This document shows, piece by piece, positions 9,554 through 43,749 of a stretch of 64,000 nt of DNA. Made by a program: the position numbers and the translations under genes. The stretch spans positions 96,346,988 to 96,410,987 of the forward strand of contig OY294045.1 in assembly GCA_958510825.1 (NCBI GenBank). Direction: 5' to 3'. Under the pieces are notes generated by a model. It worked only from the letters and a program-made list of their open reading frames with translations. It was not told the DNA's origin and searched no databases. The DNA is from Brachypterus glaber. Lineage: Eukaryota > Arthropoda > Insecta > Coleoptera > Kateretidae. Every line of letters starts with the position of its first letter. Positions within the stretch are counted from its first letter, which is position 1.

Positions 9554-10645
9554 TTATGACGAGTTGTGGCTATTCACCCGTGACGAGGTTTTTCCTATCA
9601 AAGACTTCCATATTGCAGGTAAGTGGTAACCAGTGTCCCGATTGATATTGTTAGGATGCTTGATGATTTCTATCGATTCCCGTATCTTCCTTGGCATTTT
9701 TATGTTTTCTGTTAATATTTGTTTTGTTTCAGACAAATTGATTTTATGACCTGTTTCATGTACATGTTCGGCTACTGCCGATAAGGAAATTTGTTTCTTT
9801 CTTATATTGCGCTCGTGCTCTTGAAGTCTTGTAGAAATTTTTCTCTTAGTTTCACCTATGTAAACCGTACCACAGGAGCAGGGTATTTTATATACGCCTT
9901 CTGAACTCAGGGGTATTTTGTCTTTTGTTGAAGTCAAACATTGACCTAATTTTTGGTTGGACCGAAATATAGGCTTAATATTTGACTTCTTCAAAAGTTT
10001 ACCTATTTTATCCGTGATACCGCTTACATAGGGAAGTATAACTTGTGTCTGTCTGTCATTGTCACTATTGTCCTGTTGTTTGGGTCTGGGATTTCTGTAT
10101 TTGTATATGGTCTTATTAATGTCTTTTTTGGTATAACCGTTCATGGTCAAGGCTTTGGTTAGTTTAAGGAGTTCTGTGTCTAGGGAATTCTTGTCTGAAA
10201 TCATGAAAGCCCTATGAACAAGTGAATTAACTACCGAGCGTTTTTGAGAGGGATGGTGATGTGAAAATGCGTTTAGGTATCTGTCAGTGTGGGTTTTCTT
10301 CCTGTATACCGAGTGTCCTATTGAGCCATTTTCCGTTTTGTAAACCAAAACGTCCAAAAAGGGAAGTGATCCGTTGTTCTCAATTTCCATCGTAAACCGT
10401 ATAGATTTATGTTGGGAATTGAGGTGATTTAGAAAACCTTGAAGGCTTTCCATGCCATGGGGCCAAATAGCATAGACATCGTCTACGTATCTGCGCCAAA
10501 TTTTAGGTTTTAATGTAAATGACTCAATAGCTTTTTTCTCGAAGTATTCCATGAAAGCATTAGCCGCAGGGGGTGATAATGGGGATCCCATTGCGGCGCC
10601 TGACACTTGTTCATAGAACTCTCCTCTAGTAGTAAGAGACGAAAC
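9554..10645 (-). CDS. Penelope-like RT C-terminus plus GIY-YIG endonuclease
   Basis: The frame opens at about 10645 with EFYEQVSGAAMGSPLSPP (RT motif 4 region) and carries YVDDVYAIW (RT catalytic DD). After a linker it has the GIY-YIG-type block VYKIPCSCGTVYIGETKR followed by RLQEHERNIR and HETGHKI, the zinc/GIY-YIG nuclease signature of Penelope-like elements. It runs to a stop at 9554. The N-terminal RT palm and fingers are missing; upstream it passes straight into the inverted terminal repeat. The 363 or so codons have no internal stop, so the copy is fairly young but cannot encode a complete RT. Confidence 0.87.
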   Translation of the reverse strand, partial: VSSLTTRGEFYEQVSGAAMGSPLSPPAANAFMEYFEKKAIESFTLKPKIWRRYVDDVYAIWPHGMESLQGFLNHLNSQHKSIRFTMEIENNGSLPFLDVLVYKTENGSIGHSVYRKKTHTDRYLNAFSHHHPSQKRSVVNSLVHRAFMISDKNSLDTELLKLTKALTMNGYTKKDINKTIYKYRNPRPKQQDNSDNDRQTQVILPYVSGITDKIGKLLKKSNIKPIFRSNQKLGQCLTSTKDKIPLSSEGVYKIPCSCGTVYIGETKRKISTRLQEHERNIRKKQISLSAVAEHVHETGHKINLSETKQILTENIKMPRKIRESIEIIKHPNNINRDTGYHLPAIWKSLIGKTSSRVNSHNSS

Positions 10646-10770
10646 GTGGAAAGTGAAAATCCATTAACACGTCTAAACCCGAAAGTGAAAGTTCTTTATA
10701 TCTTAATGGCCGTGAAAGCTTAAAATCTAAAATATTTTAATTAATTTGAATGACAAAAAATAGTACGTTT

Positions 10771-31159: not shown

Positions 31160-31644
31160 TTTCATAAGGTATAGAAACTATTAAAGCCCCTGCTGGATGC
31201 TTTCTTGGTGGCCTAAAAGTCAACTGCATCAGCTACGCCGATGATATGGTCCTTCTTTGCCCCTCACTTCAAGGTCTACGTATGCTTATAAAAATATGTG
31301 AAGACTTTGCCAAATCACGTTCTCTTAAATACAATAGTAATAAGAGTAAAGTTTTAGTGTTCAAGTCCACAAATTATAGAGACCTCTGTGTTCCTCCTGT
31401 TTATTTAAATAACTCTGTTGTTGAACGCGTGTTCGAAATCAAATACCTAGGTCACGTTATCAATGATATGCTAAGTGACAACTCTGACATTCAGCGTCAC
31501 AAGAAAAACCTTTGTGCCCGCGCAAACATGTTAGCTAGAAAATTCTCTAAGTGCTCTGCCGAGGTTAAGAACTCTCTTTTCAGGACATTTTGTTCTAACG
31601 CATACTGTGGTGAAATTTGGCTTGATCATACGGTGGCCTCGTGG
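31160..31644 (+). pseudogene. LINE RT fragment, 5' half (interrupted by the LTR element)
   Basis: The frame reads GCFLGGLKVNCISYADDMVLLCPS (RT YADD motif), then KYNSNKSKVLVF, EIKYLGHVI and a tail YCGEIWL before breaking at 31644. It continues after the LTR retrotransposon at 43754 (LRVCYNDAYRI, SASEMFASAR). 5'-truncated, family shared with 2004 and 53045-53826. Confidence 0.85.
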
Positions 31645-32283
31645 TGTAATGAGTGGAATTAAATTCATTTGTTAAAAAAAAAAGTAATAACTAAAAAATC
31701 CTAAATGCCGAAAATATTGTTTTTCAAAAGAGTAACATAATTTTAAAGAATAGATTTTATTTTACAAGTATTAAAAGGGCTTATTCTTATTGGCTAAGGT
31801 GTATCTTGGTGTCGCCTAGTTTTTAAGCACAAATTATATTTGGCCAATAGCTATGAAGTTAAATTTACGAGCTGGTTGGTACTTTTGTGATTGGTGTTTG
31901 AAAGCAGGTGGTTTTGTTAGCCATGATGGCTGACATTGTAAAAATTGTCTGCTGTCTAAAAGATAACATAGGGATGTTAATTTATGTGACATCGTTAATT
32001 TTATGTGTTTTTGTAAAAAGGGAATAGTACTTGATTGAATCATAAATTGTCTATATGATGACATTAATGATTCAGTTTTGGTACCATGTTTATTTCAGAC
32101 AATAGGTATTAAAATACTAAGTCGTAACTTGTGTGATATTTTACATTAGTTATTGCTAGAAATAAAAATAGGCGCCTTAAAGTCCAGATAATATTTATGT
32201 TTTTTTGACATTTATAGTTTTTAATTAATTGTTAGATTTTAAGATTTATAGTTTTTTTATTAATGGCTGCATTACAAACTTCC

Positions 32284-32318
32284 TATAAATACAGCTGCAT
32301 TTTATTTTGATAATCAGA
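32284..32318 (+). promoter_or_regulatory. LTR core promoter: TATA box and initiator
   Basis: TATAAAT at 32284-32290 and TCAGA at 32314-32318. With +1 at A32316 the TATA starts at -32, the canonical arthropod spacing. The same pair recurs in the 3' LTR (42996 and 43026). Confidence 0.75.
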
Positions 32319-32402
32319 TAGATTCATATAGAGTAAGAGTCAGATAGAGGTTAGATTGAAATCCGAAATATTGTGTTATGAAAATAACACGGGTTAAAAG
32401 AA

Positions 32403-32408
32403 AATAAA
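32403..32408 (+). terminator. LTR polyadenylation signal AATAAA
   Basis: It lies about 90 bp downstream of the predicted start site, so R would be about 110 bp. The copy in the 3' LTR (43115-43120) would terminate the genomic RNA. Confidence 0.6.
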
Positions 32409-32447
32409 GAAATAATTTAAATTGAAAGTAGTGACGGTCAAAACAAA

Positions 32448-32484
32448 ATGCAGGCTGAAATTCCAAGAAGTTTTATTCGTAAGT
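32448..32484 (+). CDS. Leader exon: ATG, 10 codons and a consensus splice donor
   Basis: ATG at 32448-32450 is followed by nine more full codons and one extra base (C32478), then GTAAGT at 32479-32484. In unspliced RNA the frame ends after 25 codons. Phase 1 matches the acceptor at 38666-38667 (env) and one at 41590-41591 (ORF4). One short uORF starts upstream at 32378. Confidence 0.65.
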
Positions 32485-33039
32485 ACCCTAGCTTAAATTG
32501 TTTTGGAAATAATGTACTTAACGAATAAGTAATGGTGTTAAAAATGATACCTGCTAAGATAAACCCTTGTCTATTGTTAAAAAGAAAGTCTTATTTTTAC
32601 ATTGTAAAATCTAAGTGTTAGAACCGTTGATATTGTAAGAATTGTGACGCCGGTAAAATAAATCCTATTATGTTTTTAAATGTTAGTTTCACTTAATTTT
32701 CACCCCTGCTGTTAAGAAAGATTAAAGAATTAAATATTTACTAAACAACCTGTAAATATTTTAGAGTTATAGTTTCTAGGTAAAAGATTATATCTAGCCG
32801 TAACAAGGTTTATTAAGGTAAACTAACCCTATGTCTCAAAGAGTATATTTATTGACCAGAACCAATAATACTAAGAATCAATTTAAGAACTTTAAAATGC
32901 TTTCTCCCAAAAGATTTTAAATTAACATTATCCTATCAAAACTGATCACAGAACCGACGAACCTGAATATTTATAATGTATGTAATAACGCAGAGCTTAA
33001 TTAAAATAGTGATTTATTAATAAAGCACGGCGGTACATA

Positions 33040-33056: not shown

Positions 33057-33227
33057 AAATTCGGTTTTGTGTAAAACTTATAGGCTACTATACCCTGTAA
33101 ACCATTGGTTATGATAGAGTAATATTTTGGGACAAAGTTGATTTTTTTTTTTTTTGTTTTTTTTTTTGTTTTGTTTTGCAATTGTCGCTATTTTATTTTG
33201 TTTTTATTATGTTAAAATGTTAAGGTT

Positions 33228-34256
33228 ATGAGTAATAGAGAACCTGAAATTACAAATGATAGCGATTCTTCAACAGATTTAAGTGATTTATATGTTGATT
33301 CTTTCGGAGATAACGATCAAAATATTTTAAATATATTAATGCCAGACCCAGCTGATATTCCGCAGGGTGATAATCTCACAGAAAATCAGGCTAATATAGA
33401 ACCGAACGAAACCCCGTTAGTAAATATGGCTAATGCAAATCCAGTGGCGTCAATTAATACAAATATTGACGATGTGCCAAGCTTTGATGGAACCGGTAAT
33501 GTTAAAGAATTTCTAAATTATGTAAATGAGATCGGTATATTGGGTGGTTGGACGGACGAACAAAAAATTGCTATTTCCAAGTTAAAATTAAAGGGGCAAG
33601 CTAAACAATTAGTAACGGTAGACGAAAAATTAAAAAACGAAAAAATATGGAATAATTTTAGTAAGTTATTAATTCAGCATTACTCAATTGAAAGATCGGT
33701 AGCTGAATTAATTCATAATTTTGCTACCTGTAAACAGCGCTTTGGTGAGAGTTGCCGTGATTATTTAGTACGTTTAAGGTTGGTCGCTGGCGAAACGGTA
33801 GCATATGGCGCCGATGCTGGTAAAAATGAAGTTCTTAAAGAAAAATTAGAGTCCGACATATTAGCTACATTTTTGTCCGGACTTTTGATGCCAATTAAAC
33901 AAAGGGTAATGTCCGCTGATCCTAAGACAATTAATGAGGCAATTTTATTCGCTAATAGGGAAGAAACAATAGAGCGATTAACTAAAGGTAAAGAATGCCG
34001 TGCAATCGAAGAACAGCCAAGAAAAGAGATAAAATGTTTTAAATGTAATAAACCTGGCCATTTTGCAAGATACTGTAGGTACAGAGTTTATTGCTATTAT
34101 TGTAAAAAGAATGACCATCATACAAAAGATTGTAGTCGTAGTAAAATACAATGTTATAAATGTAAGAAAAACGGTCATATTGCAAGGTACTGTAGGGTGC
34201 AGTTAAACGGTCAAGCAGCTGCCGCGGCGCCCCCGCGTCCAGCTGCAGAGATGTAA
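33228..34256 (+). CDS. gag: Gag polyprotein of the gypsy-type element
   Basis: 342 residues. An acidic N-terminus (to about residue 85) is followed by a retrotransposon-gag-type capsid region beginning PSFDGTGNVKEFL. Three CCHC zinc knuckles lie near residues 270-323 (CFKCNKPGHFARYC, CYYCKKNDHHTKDC, CYKCKKNGHIARYC), all with perfect C-x2-C-x4-H-x4-C spacing. Three knuckles is more than the one or two usual in this group. The protein packages the RNA genome. The stop TAA at 34254 overlaps the open pol frame by 61 nt, with a frameshift signal in the overlap. Confidence 0.95.
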   Translation: MSNREPEITNDSDSSTDLSDLYVDSFGDNDQNILNILMPDPADIPQGDNLTENQANIEPNETPLVNMANANPVASINTNIDDVPSFDGTGNVKEFLNYVNEIGILGGWTDEQKIAISKLKLKGQAKQLVTVDEKLKNEKIWNNFSKLLIQHYSIERSVAELIHNFATCKQRFGESCRDYLVRLRLVAGETVAYGADAGKNEVLKEKLESDILATFLSGLLMPIKQRVMSADPKTINEAILFANREETIERLTKGKECRAIEEQPRKEIKCFKCNKPGHFARYCRYRVYCYYCKKNDHHTKDCSRSKIQCYKCKKNGHIARYCRVQLNGQAAAAAPPRPAAEM

Positions 34257-37200
34257 AAACAGATTGGGCTAGTGTATATAATTGTTCTCAGGTAAAGGAA
34301 CCCCGCACGGTAGTTAGTATTAGTATAGGAGGGCAGTATATGTCGTCATTATTAGATTCGGGATCAATTGTTACACTAATTAAGCCTGAGATTGCGAGGG
34401 GCTTTGAGTTAAGAAATATAGATATTAATTTAAGGGATGTGCAGGGAAATTATATACCTTGTTTAGGTAGTGTAATTTTACCTATTTTAATTAATAAAAA
34501 GGTATTTTTCCACGAATTTATAGTAGCATATGTAAAGTTAAATACAGATGTTATATTAGGGGCAGATTTTATGCAAAAACATAAAGTAATTATGAATTGG
34601 GAAAATGACACGCTTATTATTGAAAATGAATGTATTAAAATGTACGAAGAAAGAAGAAAAATGGGAAACACGGGAATTATTAATAGAAACAAAGAGGTTA
34701 TTATGAGTACTATTGAAGGTGAAAAAATTGATTTTTTCAAAAATAATATGTTACAATTAGAGCAAGAGGACGAGTTAGAGGTAATAAGAAAGCAAATTTT
34801 AGTGCTCGAAGAGAATATTAAAAAATTAAGCGACAAATTTGATAATTTTAAAGCTGAAAGCACAGTAACCCCGCAAGGTTGTTGTCAAGGAATCAAGGAT
34901 CCAGATTCCGAGTTAGTAAGTGAAATTATTATTAAAAATAATTCGGATAGTAGTCCGGACCTTAATTTAAATAATAAAATCTTCGAAAATACTAAAAAAT
35001 GCGAGGATAAGGGGAAAGTAAAAGAAGTGGTTAGTAAAAAGTCGAAGAAAAAGAAAAAGAAAGGAAAAGTTGATGTGATTAATAGGCCTATTGAGGAAAA
35101 AGTGGAAAAGTCGGTGGAAAGTAATGAAAATGTAGTTTTAGAAGAACGCGTTCAAGAGAGAAGTGAAAGTCAAAGTCAAAATAAAAGTCAAAGTCAAAAT
35201 AAAAGTCAAAGTCAAAATAAAAGTCAAAGTCAAAATAAAAGCCAAAGTCAAAATAAAAGTCAAGGTCAAAGTAATAAGAAGAAAAACGTGATTCGAGTTA
35301 TTGGTGATGTAGAGATTCCGGCAAGGAGCGAAATTGTAATTTACGCTATTAATAAAGGCTATGAAAATATTAAAAGTAAAAGTATAGTCGTTGAAGGAAA
35401 TGATTCAATAACATACGGTGTTTTTGTAGCTAGAAGTATTTGTCATAATAATCAAATAATTCCCGTACGAATAATGAATATAAATAGTAAACCGAAATTT
35501 ATTTTTAACAAATCGGTATTAGGTAGTATCTTCGAGGCAGATGAGGAGGAGGAGTGTCCAGACCTGGAGTTAGGAGTCGGAGCAATTACTAAGGAGGATG
35601 AAAATTTAATTTTAGAACAACTTAAATTAAATAATCCGCGAAATGAGCATGAGCATATGTTAAAAAATTTAATTTTGAAATATATTGACGTTTTTAAAGC
35701 ACCTAGTGAAAAACTAACATGTACAAATCTAGTTAAGCATCGGATTATAACTGAAAATGTCCATCCAATTGCAAAGCGACCATATCGTGTTCCGTATCAA
35801 AGGAAACATATTTTAGAACAACAAATTGACGAATTAGTAAAAAATGGTATTGTGCAAGAATCTAATAGCCCATGGTCATTTCCGGTTATTTTAGTTGAAA
35901 AAAAATTACATCCGGGGGAAAAACCTGAATTTAGATTGTGTATAGATTACCGTGATTTGAATAAAATTACAAAATCTGATTATTTTCCTTTGCCAAATTT
36001 GCAAGAGACAATAGATCAACTGTCAGGCTCAAAACTCTTTTCCACTATGGATTTAGTTCATGGTTATTACCAAGTTCAACTGGATGAAAGAGATAGGGAG
36101 AAAAGTGCATTTTCTACTCCTACTAGGCATTTAGAATTTTTGCGTATGCCCATGGGATTTAAGAACAGTGGCGCTACATACCAGCGGTTAATGAATCGTG
36201 TATTTTATGGAATGAATGGTACTGAGTGTCTAGTTTATTTAGACGATTTAATTGTATTTTCTAGTGATGACGTTAATGAACATCTTAAGCGGCTAGAAAA
36301 AGTTTTTATTAAAATGCGGGAAAGCAATTTAAAATTTAAGCCAACAAAATGTAATTTTTTACAACCTGAAGCTAAATATTTAGGGCATGTAATTAGTAAA
36401 AATGGCGTTGAACCTGACAGCGAAAAAATTGACATAATTAAGCGTTACCCTAGACCTAATACAATAAAAGAAATACGTGCATTTTTAGGGCTGTGTGGAT
36501 TTTATAGAAAATTTGTACCTAAATTTGCACAAATTATACAACCGCTTTTATTACTTACAAAGAAAGAACAACCTTTTATTTGGACATCAAAACAGGACGA
36601 ATCATTTTTGTCATTAAAATATGCGCTAATGACACCGCCAATCTTAAAATATCCTGATTTTAATAGGCAATTTATACTAATTACCGATGCCTCTCTGGTC
36701 TCTATTAGCGGCATTTTATGTCAGTCTTATAACGGTGTTGAACACCCTGTATTTTACGCAAGTAGAACACTAAGCCCTGTAGAACAAAGATACTCTACAA
36801 TTGAACGCGAGGCTTTAGCAATTTATACATTTGTAAAAAAATTCAGAATATATATTACAGCTAGTTTTTTCCGTGTGTATGTTGATCATCAGCCATTAAA
36901 ATATTTATTTAATTTAAAGGAACCCACCTCTAGATTATCTAAATGGGCTATGTGTTTAATGGAATATGATTTTGAGATAATATATAGGCCGGGAAAAATC
37001 AATATGGCAGACAGTTTAACCAGATTAAGAGAAACTGATACATATGATGATTTACCGCCTAATCAAGTTTTAGTTATTAATAAATCAAAGGAAAATGAAA
37101 TTTTACCGTTAAATTTATGGACAAAAGAAGAATTAAAAGCAGCACAGCAGGAAGACCCTAATATAAATAAAATAAAAGAAAATCTTAACGAATATCCAGA

Positions 37201-38644
37201 ATTTTATTTAAATGAGGGAATTTTATATAAGATCAGAGATAATAATGATAGGCAAGATAAAGTTTATGTACCTTTAAAGTTAAGATATGATTTGTTACGG
37301 CTTTATCATTCAAGTTTAATTTATTGCCATGCAGGTCAAAAAGGTACATTAGCTCTTTTAAAAAGGGAGTATTTTTGGGACACAATGCATAAAGATGTTA
37401 AAAAATATGTCGAAACATGTGTATCATGTAGCGTTCACAAGACAAATTATATTCCGCCTGCGGCGCTCGTAAGAGTTGAAGCGCCTCCTAAGGTTTTTGG
37501 GCGAATATCTCTCGACTGTGTAGGACCACTTAATAGAACATCCGAGGGTTCCAAATATTTATTAACGTGTATAGACCATTTAACAAGATATCCAGAAGCG
37601 ATTCCTTTAAAAGATATTACTGCAAAAACTGTAGCAGAAGCTTTTGTCAATCATATTATTACAAGACATGGTGTACCGGACGAAATTTTGACAGACAGAG
37701 GCTCTAATTTTATGTCAAATTTATTTGTAGAAATTAGCAATATATTAAAAATTAAAAAATTACATACTACTGCTTTCCATCCTTCTTCAAATGGCGTGAT
37801 TGAACGTTTCCACAAAACATTTAAAACAATGATCTCCCATTTTATATCTGAACAAGAAAGGGATTGGGACAAAATGGTGCCTTTTGCTTTGATGGCTTAC
37901 CGTAATCAAATTCATAGTTCAACACAAGAAACTCCGTTTTTCTTGATGTATGGGCGTGATATGTGTTTACCTCAACATTGTGCAACTAAACCAAATAGAG
38001 TAAGATATGACTTGGATGATAATTATTGCCAAGAAATGTTAATGAGAATGAAAATTGCACATACAAAAGCAGCTAAATGTTTAAAACAAAGTGTAGAAAC
38101 GCAACATAATTTTGCTAATAAAGGCGCTAAAACCAGAGTTTTTAAGTTAGGCGACAAAGTTTATTTGGATGTACCTGCTATAAAACGTAATAAAATAGCA
38201 CGTAAATTTTACCCTAAATGGCGTGGTCCCTATCGAATTATTGAAAAATTAGGGGACGTAAATTACAAAATAAAACCGGTAAACGGTAAAAAAGAACAAA
38301 TTGTCCACGTTAATCGGTTAAAAGTTTATAGAGGAGATAATAGGGTATTGGAGAATTTGGATGAAAGTGAAGACAAAGAGGTAGAAATGGATAAGCAGGA
38401 TATGGAAAGTAAAAAGGAAAAACTTTTACCGGAAAATCGTGAAAATAAAAAGTTAACAAAAGGAATCAAGTTAAATATTCCAATAAATATAAATCCTGTG
38501 AATGAACTCCCTCAAATACGGGAACAGGTAATTCCAAATATACCGCCGCCTATTATTGAACCGCAAATTAGGGAGAACAATTATAATTTAAGATCCCGCG
38601 GACCGGTTCGCGACGAACCGTGGATTTTACCAAATAGAATTTAA
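34196..38644 (+). CDS. pol: Pol polyprotein: protease, RT, RNase H, integrase
   Basis: Frame -1 to gag, open from 34196 (first internal ATG 34340; numbering below from that). The protease has LLDSGS (D6) and GADFMQKH near 95. A long charged linker (about 120-325) includes five repeats of SQSQNK and a KKSKKKKKKGK stretch. RT has LFSTMDL, MPMGF and YLDD at residues 633-636. RNase H has ITDAS and REALAIYTF. Integrase has an H-H-C-C finger (YHSS...CHAG...CVSC), the triad D (ISLDCVG), D (LTDRGSN) and E (VIERFH) with exactly 35 residues between the last two, and a GPY-type KWRGPYRI block. The gene order is Ty3/gypsy. All catalytic residues are present. Confidence 0.97.
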   Translation, partial: GAVKRSSSCRGAPASSCRDVKTDWASVYNCSQVKEPRTVVSISIGGQYMSSLLDSGSIVTLIKPEIARGFELRNIDINLRDVQGNYIPCLGSVILPILINKKVFFHEFIVAYVKLNTDVILGADFMQKHKVIMNWENDTLIIENECIKMYEERRKMGNTGIINRNKEVIMSTIEGEKIDFFKNNMLQLEQEDELEVIRKQILVLEENIKKLSDKFDNFKAESTVTPQGCCQGIKDPDSELVSEIIIKNNSDSSPDLNLNNKIFENTKKCEDKGKVKEVVSKKSKKKKKKGKVDVINRPIEEKVEKSVESNENVVLEERVQERSESQSQNKSQSQNKSQSQNKSQSQNKSQSQNKSQGQSNKKKNVIRVIGDVEIPARSEIVIYAINKGYENIKSKSIVVEGNDSITYGVFVARSICHNNQIIPVRIMNINSKPKFIFNKSVLGSIFEADEEEECPDLELGVGAITKEDENLILEQLKLNNPRNEHEHMLKNLILKYIDVFKAPSEKLTCTNLVKHRIITENVHPIAKRPYRVPYQRKHILEQQIDELVKNGIVQESNSPWSFPVILVEKKLHPGEKPEFRLCIDYRDLNKITKSDYFPLPNLQETIDQLSGSKLFSTMDLVHGYYQVQLDERDREKSAFSTPTRHLEFLRMPMGFKNSGATYQRLMNRVFYGMNGTECLVYLDDLIVFSSDDVNEHLKRLEKVFIKMRESNLKFKPTKCNFLQPEAKYLGHVISKNGVEPDSEKIDIIKRYPRPNTIKEIRAFLGLCGFYRKFVPKFAQIIQPLLLLTKKEQPFIWTSKQDESFLSLKYALMTPPILKYPDFNRQFILITDASLVSISGILCQSYNGVEHPVFYASRTLSPVEQRYSTIEREALAIYTFVKKFRIYITASFFRVYVDHQPLKYLFNLKEPTSRLSKWAMCLMEYDFEIIYRPGKINMADSLTRLRETDTYDDLPPNQVLVINKSKENEILPLNLWTKEELKAAQQEDPNINKIKENLNEYPEFYLNEGILYKIRDNNDRQDKVYVPLKLRYDLLRLYHSSLIYCHAGQKGTLALLKREYFWDTMHKDVKKYVETCVSCSVHKTNYIPPAALVRVEAPPKVFGRISLDCVGPLNRTSEGSKYLLTCIDHLTRYPEAIPLKDITAKTVAEAFVNHIITRHGVPDEILTDRGSNFMSNLFVEISNILKIKKLHTTAFHPSSNGVIERFHKTFKTMISHFISEQERDWDKMVPFALMAYRNQIHSSTQETPFFLMYGRDMCLPQHCATKPNRVRYDLDDNYCQEMLMRMKIAHTKAAKCLKQSVETQHNFANKGAKTRVFKLGDKVYLDVPAIKRNKIARKFYPKWRGPYRIIEKLGDVNYKIKPVNGKKEQIVHVNRLKVYRGDNRVLENLDESEDKEVEMDKQDMESKKEKLLPENRENKKLTKGIKLNIPININPVNELPQIREQVIPNIPPPIIEPQIRENNYNLRSRGPVRDEPWILPNRI
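34202..34246 (+). promoter_or_regulatory. Predicted -1 programmed ribosomal frameshift signal (gag-pol)
   Basis: Heptamer G TTA AAC at 34202-34208 is in the gag zero frame. A 6-nt spacer follows, then a hairpin: GCAGCTG (34215-34221) pairs with CAGCTGC (34240-34246), and CGCGG (34223-34227) pairs with CCGCG (34233-34237) around a 5-nt loop. The -1 frame is open from 34196 through pol. GUUAAAC is a known functional slip heptamer in equine arteritis virus, as I recall. The hairpin is unusually GC-rich for this AT-rich element. Confidence 0.75.
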
Positions 38645-38672
38645 TTATAGCTACTGTTTTGTTGCAGGGCTT

Positions 38673-40784
38673 ATGTTTTTATGGATATGGTTATCCGAAA
38701 AATTACATACGAACGCTTTAATTGCATATGATTGCAAAAATGAAGTAACCAACATAACCGCAATTTCTTTGCGAAGTGTTGCACCATGCCCTGACATCGA
38801 TACTGGCTATAAAAGTGACATAAAGGATGTCGTAATTTTAGAAAAAGCTCGATTTGAAAAAGTTTTAGTAAAAACATGTTTAGTCGAGATTCACAGACAA
38901 ATTTTTTATTGTGGAATGCATTCACATATTAGTGCTGTAGAAGGAGGTACTCTGGCGTATGTTGATCAAACCGGCGAAAGTAATTGTCGTATGATGCACC
39001 GATTTAAGGAATACCGTGGTATTCGTGATCAAATTATTTCACGTTTAAAAATTAATTCGACAATTTCAACTTCTTTGGAGCTAGCGGGAAGTTTAGATGA
39101 TAAAGGTAATTGTCAAGGAGCTAATTTTAATGAAAATGGAAAGTCATGGAAAAATGTTGTAGTCACAGCGTCCGTAAAAATAACGTTACAAGAGTACACA
39201 GCGATAGCTAAATTAGAGTCTAATGAAATATCTTTACAAAATGGACTCGTTTGTACTTACAATGAACATTATTGTATGGATAGTCAATTTGGTGAATCTT
39301 TTTGGGAATTTACTGCAAAAGATACTTGTGAATATTATAAATTTTTATATTCGGGTAAGGGTGAGATTGTCCAAGAAAAATTTGGGGGCGGACTGGTTAA
39401 TAAATACGTAGTCGTAGAACAAAATGAGCGGATTTTTGCCATCAAGTTATTGGGAAATGAAACAAATTGTGGTTTTGACTATTTTACGACAGAGCATCCC
39501 CGTCTAATTATGGTGGCTGATAAACTTAAGGAAGATTTTTATCGTTATAGTTATTATGACTCTACGGAAGTAGATCTTACACGCTATATTAACACAAAAT
39601 TTTTATATGTTGAACAAAGTTTTAAACGAAATTTAAAAACATTTTATGCTGATTCTGTGTATCGCAGGTGTCTTTTACACAGAGAAATTTTAAAAAATAG
39701 GTTAACAATGGCTATTTCATCTCCAAATTCAGTAGCTACGTTATTAAAAGATAATTTAGGTTTATTGGGCCGTGTAAGCGGTGAAGCACTTTTTATTATG
39801 CGTTGTTCACCTGTCGTAGTTGAAATTAGGAGAGAAAAACATTGCTATGTAGAATTGCCTGTAAACTATAATAATATTTCAATGTTTATGACACCTGTGA
39901 CTAGAATTTTGCAAAGTAAAGCTGTACAAATTGAATGCAATATGTTAGTTCCGTCACTTTATTATATAAATAACAAATGGACTGGATTCGATCCATATCC
40001 TAATATAAATATAGTTCCGGTTGAATTAAAACCGGATAATGAACCAGCACTATCTTTCCGGCATATTCAAAATTTAGGTGTTGGTGGGCTTTATACACAA
40101 AAAGAGATAAAACAAGCACAAGATGCTATGATATTTAGCAATGAAAGAAATGCAATAAATAATATTCTAGTTCGTAAAATAGCTGGAAAACAAGTAGAAA
40201 CTCAAGGTTTTAATACTTTTAATTTGCTTAATCCAACAGATATTAAAAATATTACAAGTAATACAATGAAAAAAATGTATGGTTATTTTTTGTTTATAGG
40301 CGAATTTGTAAGCGGATTTATTGGAGTATATTTTATTTATAGAGCAATTAAGTTATTAGTCGATATAATTTTGAACGCTTTGTCAATACACAAAGTTAAA
40401 GGAAATTCATTCTATTTATTAGCCGCTATATGGGACAATTTAACAAACTATTTATTAAATCAACACAATAATAAACCAGATAAAAATACAGATGAAAAGG
40501 TACAGCTTAAAAATTCACAAGAAATAGACAAATCAATTTTACAAGATACCCATACATTAGATGGAGTAGGTGTACCTAGAATAAATTTTGACAGCCCGAT
40601 AACTAAAAATTGTCAAAATATAGAAGGTGATCCGTTATATGATGAAATTGATAAATCAAGGTCAACTAAAAAGTTGTCAACAAATGATAATACCACTATT
40701 GTGCATATTATTGATGAAAAATGCATTAAAAAAGATAAGAATATATCGTGTGAATCAAGCTGGACCAAAATTTCTGATGTATAA
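38673..40784 (+). CDS. env: Env-like membrane glycoprotein
   Basis: 703 residues, intact. The N-terminus is hydrophobic (MFLWIWL) and could be a signal peptide. A Cys-rich ectodomain follows with YDCKN, the motif CGMHSH and a later tract of paired cysteines plus several N-x-S/T sites. A hydrophobic segment near residues 532-572 (FLFIGEFVSGFIGVYFIYRA) looks like the membrane anchor, leaving a cytoplasmic tail of about 125 residues. The ectodomain layout resembles glycoproteins of chuvirus-type negative-strand RNA viruses more than the baculovirus-F-like Env of Drosophila errantiviruses; this is from memory of the families. A splice acceptor (ttttgttgcag) ends 5 nt before the ATG. Confidence 0.85.
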   Translation: MFLWIWLSEKLHTNALIAYDCKNEVTNITAISLRSVAPCPDIDTGYKSDIKDVVILEKARFEKVLVKTCLVEIHRQIFYCGMHSHISAVEGGTLAYVDQTGESNCRMMHRFKEYRGIRDQIISRLKINSTISTSLELAGSLDDKGNCQGANFNENGKSWKNVVVTASVKITLQEYTAIAKLESNEISLQNGLVCTYNEHYCMDSQFGESFWEFTAKDTCEYYKFLYSGKGEIVQEKFGGGLVNKYVVVEQNERIFAIKLLGNETNCGFDYFTTEHPRLIMVADKLKEDFYRYSYYDSTEVDLTRYINTKFLYVEQSFKRNLKTFYADSVYRRCLLHREILKNRLTMAISSPNSVATLLKDNLGLLGRVSGEALFIMRCSPVVVEIRREKHCYVELPVNYNNISMFMTPVTRILQSKAVQIECNMLVPSLYYINNKWTGFDPYPNINIVPVELKPDNEPALSFRHIQNLGVGGLYTQKEIKQAQDAMIFSNERNAINNILVRKIAGKQVETQGFNTFNLLNPTDIKNITSNTMKKMYGYFLFIGEFVSGFIGVYFIYRAIKLLVDIILNALSIHKVKGNSFYLLAAIWDNLTNYLLNQHNNKPDKNTDEKVQLKNSQEIDKSILQDTHTLDGVGVPRINFDSPITKNCQNIEGDPLYDEIDKSRSTKKLSTNDNTTIVHIIDEKCIKKDKNISCESSWTKISDV

Positions 40785-41545
40785 AAACGTGCGACTTACC
40801 AATTTGTTGTGTATGATGTGTAGAACTTAAATCACTATAACAAACACTAAACACGAATTCGAAGCACAATTTTCACATATTTTTTTTTGCACGTAACATG
40901 AAACAAAGAAAAGTATAATTAGATAATTATAAAAAATTAGATAAATTAGTTATATATGTGTATATATGAGTGTATATACATGTATATAATTGTTGGAAAC
41001 TTACCATAAAATGTAAAAGTTGGATAGAAGTATCTGAAAAAAATAAAATAGCGATTAGATTTTTTTTTTAAAAAGAAAAGGAAATTATAATTAAGTTAAA
41101 TTCATGAATAAAAATACTAGTATAAGTTAAAATTATTGGTGATGGTTAAGTGTAATATAAAAATATAAAAAAAAATAAACTTACGGTCGGAGATGGTCAC
41201 TTAAACGAAGTCATAACTCAACTAATTTTAAAATCAGACAGGTAGGATTGATTTTCAAGGTAATTAGGAAAGGATTAAATTTATGGCTATCCCTTAAAAT
41301 TAGGTAAACTGTATCCGATAAATTACAGTGTTGTCAATTGTCACGTATTTTTAAATTTATGTTATTTTTTATTTTTGTTTTTTATGGTTTTCTTATTTTT
41401 TTGTTTTGAAAGTAATTACAAAGAAATTTAAGACTTTTTAGACAATGGGGTAGTATTTTAGTGGGGTAGAATCGTTTTTTTTTTTGGTATAAAAGCTAGG
41501 GTCTTGATGTAAAAAGGACATTCTGAATTTAGAAGTAAATAAAAA
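40785..41545 (+). other. Env-ORF4 intergenic region of the element
   Basis: AT-rich noncoding. It holds alternating TATATG runs near 40955-40990 and the TATA-like box at its end. No structural ORF. Confidence 0.6.
41488..41522 (+). promoter_or_regulatory. TATA-like box upstream of ORF4
   Basis: TATAAAAG at 41488-41495 is followed about 31 bp later by gacattc, a weak initiator, and the ORF4 ATG lies at 41546. It could be a second promoter, or coincidence in AT-rich DNA. Confidence 0.4.
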
Positions 41546-42181
41546 ATGTATTGCGTATTTACAATTTTACATATGCTATGCATGTTGCCAGAGGACAAAA
41601 AAGAGGATTACCTCTTTGCCTATATGGCACACTTGCTACAAAAAAAACAAGAGTTAATGGATGTGGGGATCCAAATTTCAAATCCATATTTATTGGATTT
41701 GGAGGTGTTGTTGCATTCAATAGAGTTGGAATTGTTGCAAATACAACAGCAACAACAGCAGCGATTTCAACAGCAGCAACAACAACAACAACTAATCCAG
41801 CAGCAACAACAACAACAACAACTACTTCAGCAGCAACAACAACAACAACTACTCCAGCAGCAACAACAGCAACAACTTGAGCAGTGGTTGCAGGAGGAGG
41901 AACTATTTCATCAGCAACAACAGCAACAGAGGTTGCAGGAAGAGCAGGATATAGAGCAGATGCTGGAAGCTAATCAACCGAGTGAGTGGGATAGGTACTA
42001 TGAATCAATCAAAGATCTTCCCATTCCTCGGGCGATTAGGGAGCATTTGCCTATAGTTCTAGCTAGGGAGGCTGCTGGTTCCCGGAAAAAAATTTATTAC
42101 CCCCCAATGGTACCTCGTATCAGGACGCCGTCCATAGAGGAGAATGATGGGGATAATGAATCCAGCGGCAACGAAAACTAA
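41546..42181 (+). CDS. ORF4, polyglutamine protein of unknown function
   Basis: 211 codons. The N-terminal 45 residues are mixed (EDKKEDYLFAYMAHLLQKK); residues about 65-130 are glutamine runs broken by Leu; the C-terminal 70 are coding-like and acidic (WDRYYESIKDLPIPRAIREHLP, ending in an acidic stretch). No known domain was recognised. An acceptor-like tgttgccag at 41583-41591 is in frame with the LTR leader exon. A shorter frame at 41551-41880 (poly-Thr/Ala) is a shadow. The position, after env and before the 3' LTR, is where accessory genes of retroviruses lie. Real gene: plausible. Confidence 0.55.
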   Translation: MYCVFTILHMLCMLPEDKKEDYLFAYMAHLLQKKQELMDVGIQISNPYLLDLEVLLHSIELELLQIQQQQQQRFQQQQQQQQLIQQQQQQQQLLQQQQQQQLLQQQQQQQLEQWLQEEELFHQQQQQQRLQEEQDIEQMLEANQPSEWDRYYESIKDLPIPRAIREHLPIVLAREAAGSRKKIYYPPMVPRIRTPSIEENDGDNESSGNEN

Positions 42182-42356: not shown

Positions 42357-43749
42357 TGTAATGAGTGGAATTAAATTCATTTGTTAAAAAAAAAAGTAAT
42401 AACTAAAAAATCCTAAATGCCGAAAATATTGTTTTTCAAAAGAGTAACATAATTTTAAAGAATAGATTTTATTTTACAAGTATTAAAAGGGCTTATTCTT
42501 ATTGGCTAAGGTGTATCTTGGTGTCGCCTAGTTTTTAAGCACAAATTATATTTGGCCAATAGCTATGAAGTTAAATTTACGAGCTGGTTGGTACTTTTGT
42601 GATTGGTGTTTGAAAGCAGGTGGTTTTGTTAGCCATGATGGCTGACATTGTAAAAATTGTCTGCTGTCTAAAAGATAACATAGGGATGTTAATTTATGTG
42701 ACATCGTTAATTTTATGTGTTTTTGTAAAAAGGGAATAGTACTTGATTGAATCATAAATTGTCTATATGATGACATTAATGATTCAGTTTTGGTACCATG
42801 TTTATTTCAGACAATAGGTATTAAAATACTAAGTCGTAACTTGTGTGATATTTTACATTAGTTATTGCTAGAAATAAAAATAGGCGCCTTAAAGTCCAGA
42901 TAATATTTATGTTTTTTTGACATTTATAGTTTTTAATTAATTGTTAGATTTTAAGATTTATAGTTTTTTTATTAATGGCTGCATTACAAACTTCCTATAA
43001 ATACAGCTGCATTTTATTTTGATAATCAGATAGATTCATATAGAGTAAGAGTCAGATAGAGGTTAGATTGAAATCCGAAATATTGTGTTATGAAAATAAC
43101 ACGGGTTAAAAGAAAATAAAGAAATAATTTAAATTGAAAGTAGTGACGGTCAAAAAAAAATGCAGGCTGAAATTCCAAGAAGTTTTATTCGTAAGTACCC
43201 TAGCTTAAATTGTTTTGGAAATAATGTACTTAACGAATAAGTAATGGTGTTAAAAATGATACCTGCTAAGATAAACCCTTGTCTATTGTTAAAAAGAAAG
43301 TCTTATTTTTACATTGTAAAATCTAAGTGTTAGAACCGTTGATATTGTAAGAATTGTGACGCCGGTAAAATAAATCCTATTATGTTTTTAAATGTTAGTT
43401 TCACTTAATTTTCACCCCTGCTGTTAAGAAAGATTAAAGAATTAAATATTTACTAAACAACCTGTAAATATTTTAGAGTTATAGTTTCTAGGTAAAAGAT
43501 TATATCTAGCCGTAACAAGGTTTATTAAGGTAAACTAACCCTATGTCTCAAAGAGTATATTTATTGACCAGAACCAATAATACTAAGAATCAATTTAAGA
43601 ACTTTAAAATGCTTTCTCCCAAAAGATTTTAAATTAACATTATCCTATCAAAACTGATCACAGAACCGACGAACCTGAATATTTATAATGTATGTAATAA
43701 CGCAGAGCTTAATTAAAATAGTGATTTATTAATAAAGCACGGCGGTACA
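42357..43749 (+). repeat. 3' LTR
   Basis: 1393 bp, same sequence as the 5' LTR except one A/C difference noted by eye. The U5 leader ATG and donor are present, but in this copy they lie beyond the polyadenylation site. Confidence 0.95.

What the first reader, a model, noticed from the sequence alone, without database searches (positions are those of the whole stretch)
34196..34256. Textbook -1 frameshift cassette between gag and pol
Seen directly: gag and pol frames overlap by 61 nt. Inside lies GTTAAAC, in gag phase (TTA AAC), then exactly 6 nt, then a hairpin of 7 + 5 bp that is almost all G-C in an AT-rich element. Known: -1 frameshifting needs exactly this layout, and GUUAAAC is a proven heptamer in an arterivirus. 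Inference: this sets the Gag to Gag-Pol ratio. Most insect gypsy elements use other slip sites, so the choice of heptamer is unusual.
Basis: partly seen in the sequence, partly recalled or inferred. Interest (0 to 1): 0.82.

Follow-up and report, generated by a model that had tools for sequence, protein, structure and literature searches.

The report
Ribosome-slip signal in insect retrovirus-like element
A recently active virus-like mobile element carries a conserved signal that probably makes some ribosomes slip back one letter between two of its genes; the mechanism is known, but the slip letters differ by one base from those of the related families compared.

Summary
Gag (33216-34256) and pol (34196-38644, -1 frame) overlap by 61 nt. 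GTTAAAC (34202-34208) lies in gag phase, followed by a 6-nt spacer and a 7+5 bp hairpin (34215-34246). Single-sequence folding is modest: z -2.37 for the core, -0.36 for a wider window. Comparison is stronger.

In the same genome 20 copies of this family keep GTTAAAC. Nine related families carry TTTAAAC at the same junction. In 7 of the 10 families a stem starts exactly 6 nt after the heptamer, kept by compensatory changes at 3 of 5 pairs counted; three families lack it.

So this is most likely a selected -1 frameshift signal, an expected device in Ty3/Gypsy elements. The G at heptamer position 1 is derived in one lineage, which also has the most stable hairpin of the ten representatives (-20.9 against 0 to -15.5 kcal/mol); compensation is a testable idea. 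The element spans 12.1 kb with near-identical LTRs, and its env is a chuvirus-type (PF24664) glycoprotein. No frameshifting was measured.

The parts
31645..33037 (+). 5' LTR, 1393 bp, TGTA...TACA
   Evidence: direct repeat with 42357-43749, one mismatch in 1393
33216..34256 (+). gag open frame (first ATG 33228), capsid-like region and zinc knuckles, stop TAA 34254-34256
   Evidence: zf-CCHC E 6.5e-10, Ty3_capsid E 1.8e-6 (just below its curated cut-off)
34202..34208 (+). slip heptamer G_TTA_AAC in gag phase
   Evidence: the 20 family copies found; T in place of G in related families
34209..34214 (+). 6-nt spacer GGTCAA
   Evidence: same spacing in 7 of 10 families
34215..34246 (+). proposed stimulatory hairpin: outer stem 34215-34221/34240-34246, inner stem 34223-34227/34233-34237
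   Evidence: fold -20.9 kcal/mol; compensatory changes between families
34196..38644 (+). pol open frame (-1 to gag): protease, RT, RNase H, integrase; first ATG only at 34340
   Evidence: (scanned in three pieces)
38592..40784 (+). env open frame, chuvirus-type fusion glycoprotein (Monjiviricetes_fusion)
   Evidence: PF24664 E 1.7e-184
42357..43749 (+). 3' LTR; 4-bp target-site duplication GTGG flanks the element

Best explanation
It is a -1 programmed ribosomal frameshift signal of an env-carrying Ty3/Gypsy element. Shown: the anatomy (slip heptamer in gag phase, 6-nt spacer, hairpin, -1 overlap), and its conservation with compensatory stem changes across related families in the same genome. 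Inferred: a ribosome reaching the hairpin pauses with tRNA-Leu and tRNA-Asn on UUA AAC, both slip one base back onto GUU AAA, and translation goes on in pol, so that a minority of ribosomes make Gag-Pol while the rest stop at 34254. The G at position 1 is a derived, single-lineage replacement of U. It should weaken re-pairing of the P-site tRNA, and the extra G-C inner stem may offset that.
For: Geometry exact. Pol has no ATG until 34340, 84 nt past the gag stop, so it probably needs gag's start. Of 113 protease-match loci, 88 have a gag-pol overlap in -1 by a rule that ignores the heptamer; 83 of the 88 hold NTTAAAC in gag phase inside it (17 G, 66 T). Over all 113, 107 carry NTTAAAC within -320 to +10 nt of the protease match: 20 G, 87 T, none A or C. 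The codon before TTA is AAT, TAT, GAT, CAT or TGT in the 87 T loci: five amino acids, always ending in T, so letters and not residues are kept. A stem of 5 bp or more anchored exactly at +6 occurs in 7 of 10 families (at most 6 in 5000 joint shuffles, mean 1.0); 6 bp or more in 6 of 10 (at most 4, mean 0.3). On a MAFFT alignment of those 7 families not fitted to the structure, 35 of 35 cells of the five lowest pairs are standard and 3 of 5 pairs have both-sided changes; sliding the partner by 1-3 columns gives 5-86% paired and at most one such pair. The element looks recently active: LTRs 99.9% alike, 10 of 20 copies with the protease frame open for at least 1470 codons.
Against: No frameshifting was measured. 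The 79-nt fold is no better than shuffles (z -0.36). Three of the ten families (H, I, J) have no stem at +6, and I and J no convincing hairpin, so the stem is not universal. Family G's stem is weak (5 bp, p 0.15) and its fold no better than shuffles. Of the five pair-count measures, the number of pair types does not exceed shuffles (127 of 500). All comparators come from one genome, and the 7 families in the pair count were chosen because they have the stem. The protease search scored only 150 of 626 candidates, so further families may exist.
Confidence: 0.93

Rival explanations
1. Gag-Pol, or Pol alone, is made another way: reinitiation after the gag stop, an internal start, or splicing that joins the frames; the heptamer is incidental.
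For: An ATG directly precedes the gag stop (ATG TAA at 34251-34256), as in some reinitiation signals (recalled); gypsy makes env from a spliced RNA (PMC4276936 passage).
Against: That ATG is in the gag frame, and the first pol-frame ATG is at 34340. NTTAAAC in gag phase recurs at 83 of 88 overlaps. A fixed -1 frame and a covarying stem at fixed spacing would have no reason. Splicing was not tested.
Confidence: 0.03
2. The hairpin is only a by-product of an Ala/Pro-rich linker coded by G+C-rich codons; the slip site works alone.
For: The fold over 79 nt is not better than shuffles; families H, I and J lack the stem at +6.
Against: Stem pairs change on both sides between families while the encoded residues differ; 7 of 10 families place a stem at exactly +6.
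Confidence: 0.05
3. The G in the heptamer is a loss: the family relies on Gag-Pol of relatives in trans, and its own site is decaying.
For: G_UUA_AAC departs from X_XXY_YYZ and should re-pair less well (inference).
Against: The site is identical, with its hairpin, in 17 of 20 copies, and the more diverged copies (90-98% over the junction) keep GTTAAAC too. Ten of 20 copies have the protease frame open over at least 1470 codons, and copies with near-identical LTRs are many.
Confidence: 0.04

Closest known systems
gag-pol -1 frameshifting of animal LTR retrotransposons, including Drosophila gypsy
   Same: pol in the -1 frame with a positioned tandem-slip heptamer; PMC5009743 reports 28 of 51 surveyed animal retroelements with pol in -1, many with classical heptamers (passage); gypsy pro-pol read by a frameshift (PMC4276936 passage)
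   Different: heptamer GUUAAAC; a covarying stem at +6 shown across families. The 2003 survey behind that figure (Gao et al., recalled) is not held, so its list of heptamers was not checked.
Equine arteritis virus ORF1a/1b frameshift site
   Same: G_UUA_AAC heptamer; spacer of 5 nt there, 6 here; structured RNA 3' of it (PMC3835772 table and passage)
   Different: EAV is listed with a pseudoknot; here a simple two-part hairpin is predicted, and the only loop-to-downstream pairing found was 4 bp (GCCC/GGGC)
Classical U_UUA_AAC sites (coronaviruses, other arteriviruses, the sister families here)
   Same: same last six letters, same codons UUA AAC; U_UUA_AAC is named among the shiftiest heptamers on mammalian ribosomes (PMC5009743 passage)
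   Different: first letter G instead of U
BEL/Pao elements of mosquitoes with chuvirus glycoproteins (Anakin)
   Same: chuvirus-type glycoprotein as env of an LTR element (described in PMC10084718 passages)
   Different: this one is Ty3/Gypsy by gag and pol; that 2023 paper saw glycoprotein copies flanked by Gypsy fragments but no clear Gypsy capture. A 2026 paper mentions gypsy elements with type III fusion glycoproteins (PMC13172572 passages)

Membership tests
-1 programmed frameshift signal | downstream frame is -1 and overlaps the upstream frame | tested here: met
   61-nt overlap; -1 overlaps at 88 of 113 related loci
-1 programmed frameshift signal | strict heptamer X_XXY_YYZ in the upstream frame's phase | tested here: not met
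   G_UUA_AAC: phase right, position 1 differs; met in the nine sister families as U_UUA_AAC. Filed only under the wider definition that includes EAV's GUUAAAC
-1 programmed frameshift signal | RNA structure a few nt (about 5-9, recalled) 3' of the heptamer | tested here: met
   6-nt spacer, hairpin -20.9 kcal/mol, covariation
-1 programmed frameshift signal | heptamer- and structure-dependent frameshift product | not testable with these tools
   needs a reporter, profiling or peptides
Ty3/Gypsy LTR element (Metaviridae) | LTRs, short target-site duplication, gag, pol in the order PR-RT-RNase H-IN | tested here: met
Classical insect errantivirus | env of the baculovirus F type | tested here: not met
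   PF24664 (chuvirus-type) is the only Pfam family that the env frame matches at E 0.01 or better; hence not filed as a classical errantivirus

The most novel reading that the evidence does not exclude
One lineage replaced the classical U_UUA_AAC by the weaker G_UUA_AAC and in step gained an extra all-G-C inner stem, so that the Gag to Gag-Pol ratio was held by compensation between slip site and stimulator: a natural experiment inside one genome, with sister families as controls.
Probability: 0.35. Interest if true: 0.55.

Novelty: new member of a known kind. Interest (0 to 1): 0.4.

Why it matters
It shows that a recoding signal can be supported from a single genome by comparing families of one element lineage: letters of the slip site kept under different amino acids, and a stem kept by paired changes. 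The one-base switch in the window's family, next to the stablest hairpin of the set, makes it possible to ask how slip site and stimulator co-evolve while an element stays active.

Tried and rejected
Other slip sites: the codon list of the overlap showed none of the usual kind in gag phase besides GTTAAAC (by eye). Pseudoknot: the loop can pair with a downstream GGGC over only 4 bp; not claimed. Rfam: no match at E 1 for 34050-34450. Relatives in other species: a pattern scan of viral contigs gave 69 stretches, which I did not read and take as chance; a protease-alignment scan gave 63 pattern-matching stretches, none encoding a relative by tblastn. Gag relatives: 2 proteins, both with Leu-Asn after the last zinc knuckle (my reading), but no DNA to check codons. 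Two genome matches with A or C in position 1 lie in no gag or pol frame and were dropped as chance. PDB search with env: none at E 1. A PADLOC scan of gag, of no bearing, found nothing.

Rows dropped or odd: of 113 protease loci, 25 had no gag-pol overlap under my rule; 21 of these 25 still hold NTTAAAC upstream (23 of the 25 were printed). Six of 113 have none: L076, L077, L081, L094, L114, L118. L076 and L077, a more distant group, have A_AAA_AAC in gag phase instead (read). Of the 88 with an overlap, five have no NTTAAAC in phase inside it: L076, L077, L086, L110 (overlap not at the homologous junction) and L120 (its heptamer lies at the edge of the overlap as I cut it). Two of the 115 protease matches were second pieces of places already counted and were not fetched.

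Literature: Gao et al. 2003 and Chary and Hayashi 2025 (eLife) are not held. So I cannot say whether GUUAAAC has been reported in a retroelement; a full-text search for GUUAAAC with frameshift found two papers, one on animal-virus pseudoknots (passages then seen) and one on a coronavirus (listing only). A search for errantivirus with ribosomal frameshift found three papers, none opened.

Full report
Observation. The gag frame runs 33216-34256 and the pol frame 34196-38644, in the -1 frame, overlapping by 61 nt. GTTAAAC (34202-34208) is read CAG TTA AAC in gag. Six bases later a hairpin starts (34215-34246), with a 7-bp outer and a 5-bp inner stem; it is both the minimum-energy and the centroid structure of 34209-34256 at -20.9 kcal/mol. 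Statistics on this one sequence are modest: z -2.37 for the core, -0.36 over 79 nt, and a stem of at least 7 bp anchored exactly at +6 arises in 1.3% of shuffles. GTTAAAC is rarer in the window than shuffles give (6 against 19.5).

The element. LTRs 31645-33037 and 42357-43749 differ at 1 of 1393 positions, begin TG, end CA, and are flanked by GTGG on both sides. An earlier repeat search showed only 300 bp of them, apparently a limit of that tool. Gag, protease, RT, RNase H and integrase match Pfam models (the capsid and gag models just below their curated cut-offs), and the env frame matches Monjiviricetes_fusion (E 1.7e-184). Twenty copies with this cassette were found; 17 share the same 55 letters from the heptamer on, two have one change in the inner stem, and one has an insertion in the stem region. 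Ten of 20 have a protease frame open over at least 1470 codons.

Comparison inside the genome. A protease piece found 115 matches, 150 of 626 candidates having been scored. I had 113 distinct loci from them in hand (L009-L121; the other two matches were second pieces of places already counted). By a rule that ignores the heptamer, 88 of 113 have a gag-pol overlap with pol in -1, and 83 of the 88 hold NTTAAAC in gag phase inside it: 17 G, 66 T. Over all 113, NTTAAAC lies within -320 to +10 nt of the protease match in 107: 20 with G, all from this family, and 87 with T. By cassette I sort them into ten families, A (the window) to J. The codon ahead of TTA varies among the 87 T loci (CAT, GAT, TAT, AAT, TGT) but always ends in T. 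Amino-acid constraint does not explain that. Genome-wide, the extended pattern NTTAAACGGWCARGCA, which fits only some of the families, occurs with G 20 times, T 43 times, A or C twice; the latter two lie in no gag or pol frame.

The stem. In families A to G a stem starts exactly 6 nt after the heptamer (A 7, B 9, C 9, D 6, E 7, F 7, G 5 bp): 7 of 10 families with 5 bp or more, against a mean of 1.0 in shuffles and a maximum of 6 in 5000. G alone is not significant (p 0.15); H reaches 3 bp there, I and J none. H has 5 bp at +7, in a fold that shuffles match easily. On a MAFFT alignment not fitted to the structure, the five lowest pairs are standard in 35 of 35 cells, and three of the five changed on both sides (A-U to G-C, G-C to A-U, C-G to U-A). 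Four of 500 column shuffles reach the observed value on four measures; on the fifth, pair types, 127 of 500 do. Every slid register is worse. Pairs 6 and 7 fall in the alignment gap and were left out of that count; read by hand, pair 6 is U-A in A, B, C and A-U in D, E, F, and pair 7 is G-C in A, B, C and C-G in E, F, with mismatches in D (pair 7) and G (6 and 7). The seven sequences were chosen because they have the stem, which favours the result.

Direction of the change. On a protease tree of 22 rows the three G rows form one clade (99/99). Families A, B+C and D-G come out as three unresolved branches of one group, with H, I, J and L076 outside it; the split between the two sides is weak (85/88) and L076 and L088 are long branches. 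T stands in each other row that has a site (L076 has A_AAA_AAC), so T is most simply ancestral and G derived. By identity B and C are nearest to A (60-61%, against 38-39% for D and E). B and C have one codon more there (CAA AAT TTA and AGA AAT TTA, against CAG TTA), so the change may have come with a lost codon.

Mechanism. From established knowledge of tandem slippage, the P-site tRNA-Leu would move from UUA to GUU and the A-site tRNA-Asn from AAC to AAA. With G in position 1 the P-site tRNA loses its first pair, so the site should be less slippery than U_UUA_AAC (inference). The window's family has the most stable fold of the ten family representatives (-20.9; others 0 to -15.5 kcal/mol). 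That is one lineage, so compensation is a hypothesis.

Known or new. Frameshifting between gag and pol is standard for animal LTR elements (PMC5009743 passage; PMC4276936 passage). I therefore file this as a new member of a known kind, with a one-base variant of the slip site.

The envelope. Chuvirus-type env matches lie next to loci of families A, C, E (one copy), G and I by position. A 2023 paper found Gypsy fragments beside such glycoproteins but no clear Gypsy capture (PMC10084718 passages); a 2026 paper mentions gypsy elements with type III fusion glycoproteins (PMC13172572 passages). Five of the 30 protein relatives of env bear an organism name, all beetles (that these genera are beetles is recalled), so the host may be a beetle; this was not tested.

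Noticed in passing
window 38592-40784: Env is a chuvirus-type (Monjiviricetes) fusion glycoprotein in a Ty3/Gypsy element; 54 matches genome-wide, next to loci of five of the ten families by position.
   Followed up: partly
window 41543-42181: A 212-codon glutamine-rich frame lies between env and the 3' LTR, in a stretch richer in G+C than its surroundings; only weak Pfam matches below cut-off, probably low complexity. Possible accessory gene.
   Followed up: partly
L076 and L077: A more distant group of elements has a 226-232 nt gag-pol overlap with A_AAA_AAC in gag phase instead of NTTAAAC.
   Followed up: no
L035, L069 (families D and F): The hairpin loop GAACC could pair with a downstream GGTTT, a possible pseudoknot; not seen in family E, by eye only.
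   Followed up: no
window 31168-31659 (+) and 9554-10663 (-): Fragments of other reverse transcriptases (RVT_1 E 2.3e-8; E 2.7e-4, below cut-off), the first just upstream of the element.
   Followed up: no
L045 (C393) against the other family E loci: Of the family E copies only the one on C393 has a chuvirus-type env match downstream by position; the others may have lost it or never had it.
   Followed up: no
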